From the NCBI GenBank assembly GCA_017627015.1, contig JAGAHP010000012.1:1-38165 (forward strand): 38,165 bases of DNA, read 5' to 3'. A model generated the notes under the pieces. It had not been told where the DNA came from and ran no database searches. It saw nothing but the letters and a program-made list of their open reading frames with translations. Positions 4,259 through 11,812 of this stretch are shown piece by piece. The number at the start of each line of letters is the position of its first letter. Position 1 is the stretch's first letter. The stretch is from Bacilli bacterium. Its GTDB lineage: Bacteria; Bacillota_I; Bacilli_A; RF39; UBA660. The position numbers were made by a program, and so were the translations under genes.

Positions 4259-4278
4259 AAACCAATGGTTTCTATTTT
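4252..4278. terminator. Bidirectional terminator
   Basis: 12-bp perfect stem AAAATAGAAACC / GGTTTCTATTTT with AAT loop. A-run and T-run flanks serve both convergent genes and overlap both coding ends. Confidence 0.85.
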
Positions 4279-4907
4279 TTAAATAATTTATTTTCTCCAA
4301 TTTTTTCAGTATCTATTATTTTATATTTTTCTACTATATTAGGATGATCATCTGAATAAATGAAGTCTACTACAAATATAGTAAATATTGCTAAGCAAAT
4401 AACAGTAATTGTTTTTAATTCAAATTTCTTCATAAATTGTTTTATTCTAGGTGCAAATAAATAAATACATGCTAGACCAGATATACCAAAGAATATTGAT
4501 GCTAATAAACATATTCTTCCTTCTATATTAAATGGCATACTAGCATAACTCCACCACTTATGATGTTTAAAAGTTTCTAAATAAACAGCTGTACAATACT
4601 CTATAATAGTACAAAATACAAATCCACCCATAAATACTATTATTGAGTTGTTTTTAAACCTGTTTAGAACTAAATACATAAATACACCGCCACCACCATA
4701 AATTGGTAACCATGGGCCATGTAATACACCGTGGTTAGCGAGTATTCCATGTTTTAGAAAGTCATATAGTAATTCCCAAAACCATCCAAGTATAGAAAAT
4801 AGTAGAAACATTAAAATTATATATACAACTTTTTCTATTTTTTCAACTTGTTTAGCTTTTTCTTCCTCAATAATTTTTTCAATCTTTTTTCGATTAAAAT
4901 ACTTCAT
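4272..4907 (-). CDS. Putative ABC transporter permease of the CmpB type (membrane protein)
   Basis: A multi-pass membrane protein of the family annotated as putative ABC-transporter type IV (ABC_trans_CmpB). Diagnostic features are LGWFWELLYD, GVLHGPWLPIYGGGG and NIEGRICL, with about five hydrophobic helices and a short charged cytoplasmic N-terminus. No ATP-binding subunit is nearby, so the transporter label is by family name only and the biological role is unknown. The ATG at 4907 is preferred because AGGTGATTGTTT precedes it; a TTG two codons upstream is inside the SD region. A second member of the same family lies at 11123, and the two are divergent paralogues. Confidence 0.82.
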   Translation of the reverse strand: MKYFNRKKIEKIIEEEKAKQVEKIEKVVYIILMFLLFSILGWFWELLYDFLKHGILANHGVLHGPWLPIYGGGGVFMYLVLNRFKNNSIIVFMGGFVFCTIIEYCTAVYLETFKHHKWWSYASMPFNIEGRICLLASIFFGISGLACIYLFAPRIKQFMKKFELKTITVICLAIFTIFVVDFIYSDDHPNIVEKYKIIDTEKIGENKLFKK

Positions 4908-4977
4908 AAACAATCACCTATTGTATTAATTTTACCACTAAAATAAGTAAAAGTTAAGTCAATTAAGAAAAATACTA

Positions 4978-5023: not shown

Positions 5024-5100
5024 GGCGGAGTTGGTGAAGTGGTTAACACGCCGGATTGTGGCTCCGGTATGCATGGGTTCGATCCCCATATTCCGCCCCA
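5024..5100 (+). tRNA. tRNA-His (anticodon GTG)
   Basis: Acceptor 5025-5031 pairs with 5090-5096, and the extra G-1 (5024) pairs with discriminator C (5097), the hallmark of tRNA-His. Anticodon loop TTGTGGC gives GTG. CCA is encoded at 5098-5100. Its last six bases start a 42-bp sequence repeated 946 bases downstream. Confidence 0.97.
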
Positions 5101-5136
5101 TTAAGAAAAATAGAACTTTTATAAGTTCTTTTTTTT
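5095..5136 (+). repeat. 42-bp direct repeat, copy 1 (tRNA-His 3' end plus terminator)
   Basis: Identical over 42 bases to 6041-6082. It comprises the last six tRNA-His bases (GCCCCA), a short spacer and the terminator hairpin AGAACTT/AAGTTCT (5112-5118 / 5123-5129) with eight T's. Flanks differ (TTCC before, ACTCG after). Confidence 0.95.
5112..5136 (+). terminator. Terminator of tRNA-His
   Basis: 7-bp stem 5112-5118 / 5123-5129, 4-base loop, T-run 5129-5136. Confidence 0.85.
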
Positions 5137-5162
5137 ACTCGTAGAATAGTAATATTATGATG

Positions 5163-5193
5163 AGATTAGAAATAGTAATTTCTAATCTTTTCT
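5163..5193 (+). terminator. Orphan terminator-like hairpin
   Basis: 11-bp perfect stem 5163-5173 / 5178-5188, loop AGTA, then TTTTCTT. No gene lies between it and the preceding tRNA-His terminator, so it may be a remnant of a lost gene. The arm AGATTAG is shared with the terminator at 5897. Confidence 0.6.
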
Positions 5194-5226
5194 TGTTTAT
5201 AAACTGTAAAGAAAATGTATGAAAAA

Positions 5227-5255
5227 TTGACTTTTACATTATAAATAATTATAAT
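5227..5255 (+). promoter_or_regulatory. Promoter of islet gene
   Basis: TTGACT (5227-5232), 17-base spacer, TATAAT (5250-5255), close to consensus. Confidence 0.75.
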
Positions 5256-5286
5256 TATATAAAGTAAATATTTTAGGAGGTGCTAT

Positions 5287-5895
5287 ATGTCAAAAATTAT
5301 AGAGTCTATTTCAGAAACAGAAGAATTTGAAGTAGTAAAAAGTCTTTTGATAAATAACGAAAAATGGTTAAAATTAACTTTTGATAAATATGCAGAACAA
5401 TTGAAAACATTGGATTTATCAAAAGAGTATTATTCAATTGATAAAAAAGTTGATTTTTTTAAAATTGAAGAAATATTGGATGATATGAGAGTTAAACAAG
5501 AACAATATAATAAAAATAAAATTGCATTAGATGGATTAGAAAAAGTATCACGTCTTATGTATATGCCAATAACACCAGAAAACACTGAGAAAATTATTAA
5601 TATCATTAATGAGAAAGCTCGTGATGCTTGGGTTAATTATAAGAATCAAAATGAGGGATATAATTATGTGATGAATATGATATCACAAGATTATTATTCA
5701 AAAAAAGAAGACTCAAAATATTTTAATGAGAAAATGTTAGTAGAAAGAATAAAAAATGATTATCAAAATGCTGAAGATGAGCAAAGTAAAAAGTATGCTA
5801 TTCAAGAAATGTTATTCATAGAACAATTATCAAAAAATCCAATGTTTGCTGATAGGTTTTCAACATTAGATTCATCTTCTGGACCAAAAATGTAA
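5287..5895 (+). CDS. Unknown helical protein, islet beside tRNA-His
   Basis: A 202-residue soluble protein I do not recognise. It is Lys/Glu/Asn-rich and probably almost all alpha-helical, with no signal peptide, membrane segment, cysteine cluster or nucleotide motif. It ends in SSSGPKM. The start is well supported: AGGAGG at 5275-5280 and a near-consensus promoter. It is the only gene between two exact 42-bp repeats of the tRNA-His 3' end and terminator, and it ends with its own terminator, so it behaves as a self-contained unit. Nothing in it suggests an integrase or transposase. It might be a captured accessory gene or the product of a local duplication. Confidence 0.75.
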   Translation: MSKIIESISETEEFEVVKSLLINNEKWLKLTFDKYAEQLKTLDLSKEYYSIDKKVDFFKIEEILDDMRVKQEQYNKNKIALDGLEKVSRLMYMPITPENTEKIINIINEKARDAWVNYKNQNEGYNYVMNMISQDYYSKKEDSKYFNEKMLVERIKNDYQNAEDEQSKKYAIQEMLFIEQLSKNPMFADRFSTLDSSSGPKM

Positions 5896-5896
5896 T

Positions 5897-5924
5897 AGAT
5901 TAGATATTGTATCTAATCTTTTTT
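5897..5924 (+). terminator. Terminator after islet gene
   Basis: 10-bp perfect stem 5897-5906 / 5910-5919, 3-base loop, T-run. Confidence 0.88.
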
Positions 5925-5963
5925 ATGTTTAAAGGAGGAATAAATAATCGTCATATTAAGATA

Positions 5964-5993
5964 TTGTGATAATAGTAAAATATATGCTATAAT
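5964..5993 (+). promoter_or_regulatory. Orphan promoter in front of repeat copy 2
   Basis: TTGTGA (5964-5969), 18-base spacer, TATAAT (5988-5993). No ORF follows before the terminator at 6082. Confidence 0.55.
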
Positions 5994-5999
5994 ACAAAT

Positions 6000-6082
6000 A
6001 ACAAAGTGAGGACTTAATTTCTTATATTAGTATTAGAAAAGCCCCATTAAGAAAAATAGAACTTTTATAAGTTCTTTTTTTT
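6000..6082 (+). ncRNA. Candidate ~80-nt transcript or decayed tRNA locus
   Basis: A promoter-like sequence ends at 5993 and a complete terminator (repeat copy 2) ends at 6082. The ~83 bases between have no usable ORF (GTG at 6006 stops after three codons) and no cloverleaf. It could be a small RNA, or the shell of a second tRNA locus of which only GCCCCA and the terminator survive. No conserved RNA family is recognised. Confidence 0.3.
6041..6082 (+). repeat. 42-bp direct repeat, copy 2
   Basis: Exact copy of 5095-5136, including the tRNA-His tail GCCCCA and the full terminator (stem 6058-6064 / 6069-6075 plus T-run). Preceded by AAAA and followed by GTAAAG. Confidence 0.95.
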
Positions 6083-11122: not shown

Positions 11123-11812
11123 ATGAATACTTTTTTAGTTTTAGTTTTTATATTCTTTATTGGTAGTACAATTGGGTGGATCTTAGAATTGATTTTTAGA
11201 AGACTGTATCATGGTAAGTGGGTTAATCCAGGATTTTTAGTAGGTCCATATTTACCTATATACGGACTTAGTTTAACATTAATGACAGGTATGCATGTAT
11301 TTTTTCAATCATATGATTTATCTCCAATAGTTCAAATTATATTAATGGGTTTATCTATTACCCTTATAGAGTTAATTGGAGGTTTAATATTCTTAAAACA
11401 AGGTGTAAGATTATGGGATTATAGAGATAGAAAGTTTAATTATAAAGGTGTTATATGTCCATTATTTACTATAATATGGATACTTATGGGTGCGGTATAT
11501 TATATTTTTATTGCGGAAAGGTTATTTGATGCATTAGAGTGGTTCAGTGATAATTTATCATTTTCTTATATACTAGGTATATTTACAGGGTGTATAGTTA
11601 TAGATTTCTTCTATTCAACTAAGTTATATAAGAAGGTTAAAAAATACGCAAAGAATAATGATATTGATATTATTTATGAAAAACTTAAAATGCATATAAA
11701 AGATGTTCAAAAAGAAGCAAGAGAAAAATATTCATTTATTTTACCCTTTAAACAATCAAGTAAGATGAATGATTATGTAAGTTCTTATAAAGAAAAAGTA
11801 AAAAGAAGGTAG
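11123..11812 (+). CDS. Putative ABC transporter permease of the CmpB type (second copy)
   Basis: A 229-residue membrane protein of the same family as the gene at 4272-4907. Shared marks are IGWILELIFRRLYHGKWVNPGFLVGPYLPIYG and FNYKGVICPLFTIIW, in the order and spacing of the first copy. About five hydrophobic helices are followed by a basic cytoplasmic tail of ~60 residues, absent from the other copy. The ATG at 11123 follows GGTGATTAT, with a TATAAT at 11101-11106. It is the first gene of a tight operon with a DUF2974 hydrolase (4-base gap) and a GH20 enzyme (8-base gap). Role unknown. Confidence 0.82.
   Translation: MNTFLVLVFIFFIGSTIGWILELIFRRLYHGKWVNPGFLVGPYLPIYGLSLTLMTGMHVFFQSYDLSPIVQIILMGLSITLIELIGGLIFLKQGVRLWDYRDRKFNYKGVICPLFTIIWILMGAVYYIFIAERLFDALEWFSDNLSFSYILGIFTGCIVIDFFYSTKLYKKVKKYAKNNDIDIIYEKLKMHIKDVQKEAREKYSFILPFKQSSKMNDYVSSYKEKVKRR

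What the first reader, a model, noticed from the sequence alone, without database searches (positions are those of the whole stretch)
5095..6082. One-gene islet bounded by exact 42-bp copies of the tRNA-His 3' end and terminator
The last six bases of tRNA-His plus its terminator (5095-5136) recur without mismatch at 6041-6082, 946 bases on. Between them lies one complete unit (promoter, unknown 202-residue gene, terminator) and an orphan terminator hairpin. tRNA 3' ends are common integration sites, and the copy may be an attachment-site duplication. The alternative is a tandem duplication of the tRNA-His locus with the second tRNA body lost. No integrase is present, so the element would have been moved in trans or be a relic.
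Basis: partly seen in the sequence, partly recalled or inferred. Interest (0 to 1): 0.7.

Follow-up and report, generated by a model that had tools for sequence, protein, structure and literature searches.

The report
Gene-cassette array at a tRNA-His gene
The single-gene insert behind a tRNA gene looks like one unit of a family of swappable gene cassettes in uncultured Bacilli, which resembles integrons but uses different attachment sites and probably a different enzyme.

Summary
In detail: 5095-5136 recurs exactly at 6041-6082, the only exact direct repeat of 20 bp or more in the window. It is not a lost second tRNA: the right copy follows a conserved element (RE), present three times in relative G196 and once in G391, each time between tRNA-His and a GCCCCA-terminator. 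G196 has three cassettes in tandem there; one, shared with G391, is 92.6% identical while two upstream proteins are 53-54% identical.

The islet also holds a left site (R1, 5137-5162) and a right site (R2, 5947-5971). R1-gene-R2 looks like the mobile piece: a GNAT cassette at tRNA-His in G196 and behind rlmD in G097 is 94% identical from R1 to R2. R2 occurs 289 times in 338 family genomes (reversed pattern 43); 30 genomes have three or more (reversed: none). The three anchor-near spacers of the rlmD array copy the end of rlmD, as the 42 bp copy the end of tRNA-His; seven other tested spacers do not copy their anchor. Mobilizable elements with a tyrosine integrase reach these sites, so that integrase is my best candidate. 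No recombination was observed; the window's genome is not held.

The parts
5025..5100 (+). tRNA-His(GTG), anchor gene of the array; its last six bases are GCCCCA
   Evidence: ARAGORN; the same gene found in 12 of 12 genus genomes
5095..5136 (+). left copy of the 42-bp repeat: tRNA-His 3' end plus terminator
5137..5162 (+). R1, left cassette site: arm ACTCGTAGAATAGTA (5137-5151) and core ATATTATGATG (5152-5162)
   Evidence: sequence; 1 mismatch in 17 to the R1 motif, best of 100 shuffles 2; same motif begins the GNAT cassette in G196 and G097
   Evidence: sequence; G391 spacer; the likeness is read by eye, untested
5287..5895 (+). cassette gene, 202 aa, no known family found, predicted all-helical
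5898..5926 (+). hairpin plus T-run, terminator of the cassette gene
   Evidence: sequence, inverted repeat I16
5947..5971 (+). R2, right cassette site: arm ATCGTCATATTAAG (5947-5960) and core ATATTGTGATA (5961-5971)
   Evidence: identical over 25 of 25 bp to the R2 behind the GNAT cassette of G196; 3 mismatches in 18 to the R2 motif, best of 100 shuffles 4; survey
5972..6040 (+). RE, conserved tRNA-His-type spacer: extended -10-like box, then a near-invariant stretch ending in AGAAAA
   Evidence: five copies compared; 2 of 12 genus genomes hold the motif
6041..6082 (+). right copy of the 42-bp repeat (end of the spacer): GCCCCA plus terminator

Best explanation
The islet is a one-gene mobile cassette (R1, gene, R2) standing in a short cassette array anchored at the 3' end of tRNA-His. 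A recombinase acts at cassette boundaries, around a short ATATT core that follows a conserved arm. Cassettes without a recombinase are moved in trans, most likely by the tyrosine integrase of IMEs that reach the same sites. Between cassettes lies a spacer with a terminator; at tRNA-His, and in the three anchor-near spacers of an rlmD array, it carries a copy of the anchor gene's 3' end, so the anchor stays whole. The 42-bp repeat is this copy. Shown: the repeat, the sites, arrays, block boundaries at the sites, and cassettes shared between genomes and loci. Inferred: recombination at the core, the enzyme, how the spacer copies arise. The gene product is unknown; an accessory, possibly defence-related, role is a guess from one other cassette.
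For: RE stands 3 times in G196 and once in G391, downstream of tRNA-His and directly before GCCCCA. Cassette C (NTP_transf_6 + Fic) is 92.6% identical over 1,431 bp in G196 and G391 while two upstream proteins are 53% and 54% identical; cassette D is 96.4% identical over 877 bp in G390 and G396 against 46% and 44% upstream. The GNAT cassette is at tRNA-His in G196 and behind rlmD in G097, 94.3% over 594 bp, ending at R1 and R2. R2 pattern: 289 hits in 92 of 338 genomes; the reversed pattern 43 hits in 42 of 338; 30 genomes with 3 or more R2 hits, none with 3 or more control hits. R2 lies within 50 bp behind a same-strand stop in 18 of 34 sites (exact matches 12 of 16) against 49 of 1,200 random points. 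Of 70 free ends of 41 cross-genome blocks, 18 lie within 25 bp of a core in both partners, against 2.0% of paired internal points. The first three of seven spacers of the rlmD array align with the rlmD 3' end plus terminator (scores 105, 72, 84; shuffled maximum 29; RlmD by TIGR00479). IMEs begin at R2 in G196 and G463, and G463 has ATATTCCGAACTA on both sides.
Against: No excision circle or in-strain variation is shown; I had no reads to look in. At tRNA-His, cassettes C and D have neither R1 nor R2 beyond chance, and A has only R2, so there a second way of exchange (at GCCCCA), or loss of sites, must be assumed. No R1 follows the right 42-bp copy in the window (best 7 mismatches). The other four spacers of the rlmD array and three of three behind yebC do not match their anchor, so copying the anchor end is not a general rule. 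G097 has an array but only two PF00589 proteins, both Xer-sized. Of four aligned IMEs one (G390:C38) shows no R2 at its left end and one (G392) a poor one; no R1 was found at the right end in the G196 stretch read, nor R2 at the left end of the G391 element. 52 of 70 block ends are not at a core. 54 of 76 cassette-end genes are singletons in my set. 42 of 338 genomes match the control, so many single R2 hits are probably chance. The window's genome is not held.
Confidence: 0.68

Rival explanations
1. The cassettes are Xer modules: XerC and XerD act on R1 and R2 as dif/pdif-like sites, as in Acinetobacter pdif modules.
For: G097 has a long array but only two PF00589 proteins, of 298 and 296 aa open frame. 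The sites are about 25 bp and dyadic, and cassettes are bounded by such sites on both sides. The best NCBIfam matches of the IME integrase itself are Xer-like, below their cut-offs.
Against: Some IMEs with their own integrase end at the same sites. No host dif site was identified, so likeness to dif was not tested; a likeness of R2 to ColE1 cer (20 of 30) rests on a recalled sequence compared by eye.
Confidence: 0.25
2. A decayed integrative element (CIME) at the tRNA-His 3' end: a larger element inserted with GCCCCA as core and shrank to one gene; accretion of such remnants made the array.
For: A 10.7-kb element with a large serine recombinase sits at exactly this site in G394, flanked by CGCCCCATTT copies. 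Cassettes C and D at tRNA-His have no R1 or R2 beyond chance, so their boundaries need only GCCCCA. CIME accretion is described (PMC5704250, passages).
Against: Independent decay would hardly leave the same RE and R sites around different genes, nor the same R1-gene-R2 unit behind rlmD.
Confidence: 0.25
3. Tandem duplication of the tRNA-His locus with loss of the second tRNA body.
For: RE has a promoter-like box and ends in GCCCCA plus terminator, as a tRNA gene would.
Against: RE is near identical in three diverged genomes and stands behind different genes; no tRNA is found there; the rlmD array shows a like pattern with a protein gene.
Confidence: 0.03

Closest known systems
Integrons (IntI, attI, attC gene cassettes)
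   Same: Arrays of short gene units in one orientation behind a fixed anchor, each followed by a recombination-site-like unit; the same cassette in arrays of different genomes
   Different: No IntI: the IME integrase scores 55 bits for TIGR02249 against a cut-off of 265. None of 13 R2-spacer-R1 units carries RYYYAAC or GTTRRRY near its ends. Spacers carry a terminator and, in two loci near the anchor, the anchor gene's 3' end
CIMEs and tandem accretion of ICEs/IMEs at tRNA or housekeeping 3' ends
   Same: Integrase-less units flanked by att-like sites, in tandem at a gene 3' end, next to or like elements that do encode an integrase (PMC5704250, passages)
   Different: The compared units are about 0.6-1.4 kb with shared ends, found at many loci; the same unit occurs behind different anchors
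pdif (dif) modules of Acinetobacter
   Same: Discrete genes bounded by short sites, taken to move as modules (abstract starts in a search listing only)
   Different: Site sequence differs from dif as I recall it; some spacers copy the anchor gene end; an IME integrase seems to share the sites
IMEs with tyrosine integrase and MobV relaxase
   Same: The candidate helper is such an element: PF00589 integrase, HTH_17 excisionase-like protein, MobV
   Different: Here element ends coincide with sites that also flank integrase-less gene cassettes

Membership tests
Integron | IntI-type integrase gene at the array | tested here: not met
   IME integrase far below the TIGR02249 cut-off; no site-specific recombinase among 37 of 44 window ORFs; G097 has two Xer-sized PF00589 proteins only
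Integron | attC sites with RYYYAAC and GTTRRRY ends | tested here: not met
   0 of 13 units with either
Integron | tandem array of exchangeable gene cassettes | tested here: met
   exchange is inferred from sequence comparison
CIME / IME accretion | unit flanked by direct att-like repeats at a gene 3' end, integrase genes absent | tested here: met
   42-bp repeat and R1/R2 cores; no integrase found in the window
CIME / IME accretion | a related element with integrase uses the same att sites | tested here: inconclusive
   G463 has R2 at the left and R1 at the right end; G196 has R2 at the left end, G391 R1 at the right end; G392 poor, G390:C38 none
CIME / IME accretion | mobilisation by that integrase | not testable with these tools
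   needs excision or transfer assays
pdif modules | flanking sites are XerC/XerD (dif-like) sites | not tested
   no host dif site was identified; comparison with cer only from recall
tRNA duplication remnant | tRNA-derived sequence before the right copy | tested here: not met
   no tRNA found; RE is a separate conserved element

The most novel reading that the evidence does not exclude
A new class of gene-cassette system, parallel to integrons, in uncultured small-genome Bacilli: integrase-less cassettes share the attachment sites of an Int-Xis-MobV element, collect in arrays behind tRNA and housekeeping genes, and at some anchors keep the anchor gene whole by carrying a copy of its 3' end and terminator in the nearby spacers.
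Probability: 0.45. Interest if true: 0.88.

Novelty: new variant of a known kind. Interest (0 to 1): 0.7.

Why it matters
Complete integrons are reported as extremely rare in Firmicutes (PMC9024848, passages seen). A cassette-array system of another make in these bacteria would suggest that gene-capture arrays arose more than once, give a catalogue of mobile accessory genes (one tested cassette matches a candidate defence family), and make testable how a spacer comes to copy the end of its anchor gene. It also offers a short site motif by which arrays can be sought in metagenomes.

Tried and rejected
tRNA duplication: rejected. attC-like or HUH/rolling-circle reading of RE: RE alone does not fold better than shuffles (window 5998-6046 z 0.09; G390 junction z -0.49); the low z of longer pieces (-2.82; -2.62 and -1.38) includes the terminator. 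RE as a small RNA gene: an extended -10-like TGNTATAA box is kept in all five copies; Rfam matches only the tRNA above its cut-off; left open. Motif scans of viral contigs: repeat 0, RE 0, exact R2 0. RE in the family: 1 of 386 genomes, G196 (G391 was not in that draw). DNA search with spacer plus repeat: 108 of 243 genomes matched, mostly terminator-like or R2 pieces; recognised as R2 only later. Islet protein: 3 of 193 family genomes gave weak partial matches (E 3e-4 to 5e-4), which I dropped; genome contigs 0, viral contigs 0, phages 0. Serine recombinase of G394 as the mover: matches in 7 of 12 genomes including G394 itself, none examined at R sites; kept as evidence that GCCCCA is a target. 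Sister genus of G071: tRNA-His matched in 5 of 8 genomes, no further CCCCA on the tRNA strand in the about 1.5 kb behind it. Foldseek in PDB: no match at E 0.001 or better. R2 counts come from loci that I chose and hold at least one site twice.

Full report
Observation. The 42-bp repeat is exact at 5095-5136 and 6041-6082, is the only exact direct repeat of 20 bp or more in the window, and exceeds anything in 200 Markov simulations (longest 23 bp). Its first six bases are the 3' end of tRNA-His. Of 44 ORFs of 80 aa or more I scanned 37 (nine of them were scanned first with NCBIfam, two of those again with Pfam); none is a site-specific recombinase, though recA and recU are there. The seven left out are short minus-strand ORFs, most of them nested. 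The 202-aa gene has no Pfam or PHROG family and no strong PADLOC match and one homologue, 57% identical, in a search of 5.8 billion proteins. A model from two sequences is all helical, mean pLDDT 80, without a PDB match at E 0.001.

Relatives. The window's genome is not held. Named relatives of a neighbouring gene are uncultured Bacilli, Erysipelotrichaceae, Clostridia, Tenericutes and other Firmicutes at 54-72% identity. By RNase Y, among 385 genomes searched, the nearest are G097 (97%) and G312 (91%); I think of the group as RF39-like, a label from recall and no call. tRNA-His was found in 12 of 12 genomes of the genus. Two gene families (F00, F02) precede it in 11 of 12, not in G150; what follows it differs widely. 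G097 has no islet there, other genes instead. The contig of G312 ends two bases behind its tRNA-His, so that site could not be read.

Array at tRNA-His. In G196 tRNA-His is followed by an alpha/beta-hydrolase gene (A), a GNAT-like gene (B, no Pfam match) and an NTP_transf_6 plus Fic pair (C), each followed by RE and GCCCCA. G391 has cassette C alone, at the same site. C is 92.6% identical over 1,431 bp while two upstream proteins are 53% and 54% identical; cassette D of G390 and G396 is 96.4% identical over 877 bp against 46% and 44% upstream. So single cassettes have moved between species into this place. RE is found in 2 of 12 genus genomes and in 1 of 386 family genomes, the same G196. Its core is nearly invariant over five copies, but it does not fold better than chance by itself. 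What it does is open.

A second locus shows the unit. The GNAT cassette of G196 was sought in 376 family genomes; 31 have a match at E 1e-30 or better. In G097 the match (96%) is not at tRNA-His but in an array behind rlmD. The two copies agree over 594 bp at 94.3%, from TAAAATAGTAATRTTRCGATG on the left to ATTAAGATATTGYGATA on the right; beyond these the alignment stops. These are R1 and R2. The window islet has both: R1 at 5137-5162 and R2 at 5947-5971, the latter identical over 25 bp to that of G196. Against shuffles both are better than chance in the window islet and in B; A has only R2, and C and D have neither.

Arrays are widespread. An 18-base R2 pattern with at most one mismatch gave 289 hits in 92 of 338 family genomes, up to 16 in one, 30 genomes with three or more; the reversed pattern gave 43 hits in 42 genomes, never more than 2 in one (tallies and by eye). 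Single hits are therefore in part chance. The pattern was made from genomes that are in part in the searched set. In the 30 loci returned by that search, R2 follows a same-strand stop codon within 50 bp in 18 of 34 sites, exact matches 12 of 16, random points 49 of 1,200. In a set that I chose, 76 of 104 R2-like sites follow a stop within 60 bp; 7 cassette-gene groups recur between genomes, an eighth is a double listing of one locus, and 54 of 76 genes are singletons. Between arrays of different genomes 41 shared blocks have 70 free ends; 18 lie within 25 bp of a core in both partners (12 of 35 left, 6 of 35 right), against 2.0% of paired internal points and 4.4% of single random points. Clear examples are G390:C49 with G441:C50 and G097:C3 with G196:C4. 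Several arrays stop at contig ends.

The spacers and the 42 bp. In the rlmD array the first three spacers align with the 3' end of rlmD plus its terminator, scores 105, 72 and 84 against a shuffled maximum of 29; the first copies the last 29 bases of the aligned stretch without a change. The later four spacers do not (scores 14-24, shuffled maxima 28-34), and in an array behind yebC three of three do not match yebC. At tRNA-His the spacer ends in GCCCCA and, in the window and in the first two spacers of G196, a terminator like that of the tRNA; the last spacer of G196 and that of G391 end in other terminators. The exact 42-bp repeat is thus one case of a pattern seen near two anchors, not of a general rule.

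Candidate enzyme. Elements with a 426-aa tyrosine integrase, an HTH_17 excisionase-like protein and a MobV relaxase are 93-96% identical to each other over 3.2-3.8 kb. Their left end starts at the R2 core in G196 and G463 and at a poor copy in G392, but not in G390:C38. R1 stands at the right end in G463 and behind the relaxase gene of a related element in G391; in G143 and G281 an R1 follows a relaxase-like gene with two or three ORFs between, and no integrase gene was read there. In G463 the 13 bases ATATTCCGAACTA stand on both sides. I therefore take R1 and R2 as attachment-site halves of this integrase family, and the gene cassettes as integrase-less passengers. Against this, G097 has an array and only two Xer-sized tyrosine recombinases. 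The tRNA-His end itself is also used by a 10.7-kb element with a large serine recombinase in G394. Cassettes C and D lack both sites, so exchange at GCCCCA may be a second route there.

Known kinds. By behaviour this is like an integron, but the integrase test (55 bits against a cut-off of 265) and the attC test (0 of 13) both fail, so it is not filed as one. By anatomy it is nearest to CIMEs and IME accretion (PMC5704250, passages) and to pdif modules (search listing only). IntegronFinder 2.0 reports one complete integron and a few CALIN in Firmicutes (PMC9024848, passages). Five literature searches listed no paper on cassette arrays in this group; only their listings and passages of two papers were seen, and most subscription papers and preprints are not covered.

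Noticed in passing
window 5972-6040 and L051, L048 (RE copies): RE keeps an extended -10-like box (TGNTATAAT in four of five copies, TGNTATAAC in one) and about 47 nearly invariant bases in five copies from three diverged genomes, before a terminator: it could be a small RNA gene. It does not fold better than shuffles on its own.
   Followed up: partly
L055 and G394:C3, tRNA-His +70 to +10754: A 10.7-kb element with a 636-aa large serine recombinase is inserted at the same tRNA-His 3' end in G394, with CGCCCCATTT on both sides.
   Followed up: partly
L051:15143-16409 and the same cassette in L048: Cassette C pairs an NTP_transf_6 protein with a Fic-domain protein that matches PADLOC candidate defence family PDC-S04 (E 8e-103); a 71% identical relative lies on an IMG/VR contig (L133).
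   Followed up: partly
L050:2916-3743 (-): Cassette D protein of G390 and G396 has no Pfam match and 3 homologues in a search of 5.8 billion proteins.
   Followed up: no
L046 (G312:C22): A contig of the second-nearest relative ends two bases behind tRNA-His, as expected if the site is repeated or mixed in the population.
   Followed up: no
window 4272-4913 (-) and 11123-11812 (+): Two CmpB-type membrane protein genes (PF06541) stand on either side of the variable stretch behind tRNA-His.
   Followed up: no
contig starts, e.g. G281:C1, C10, C17; G441:C22, C50; G416:C9, C31: R2 sites lie 50-220 bp from contig starts in several genomes, so assemblies may break at array repeats and array sizes may be underestimated.
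   Followed up: partly
G097:C3 array and other arrays: The later spacers belong to a few recurring types (for example CCCGTACATTAAGATGAG plus hairpin, or AGGAACGAAAGTTCC) that recur in several genomes and may be ends of other, unknown anchor genes or of elements.
   Followed up: no
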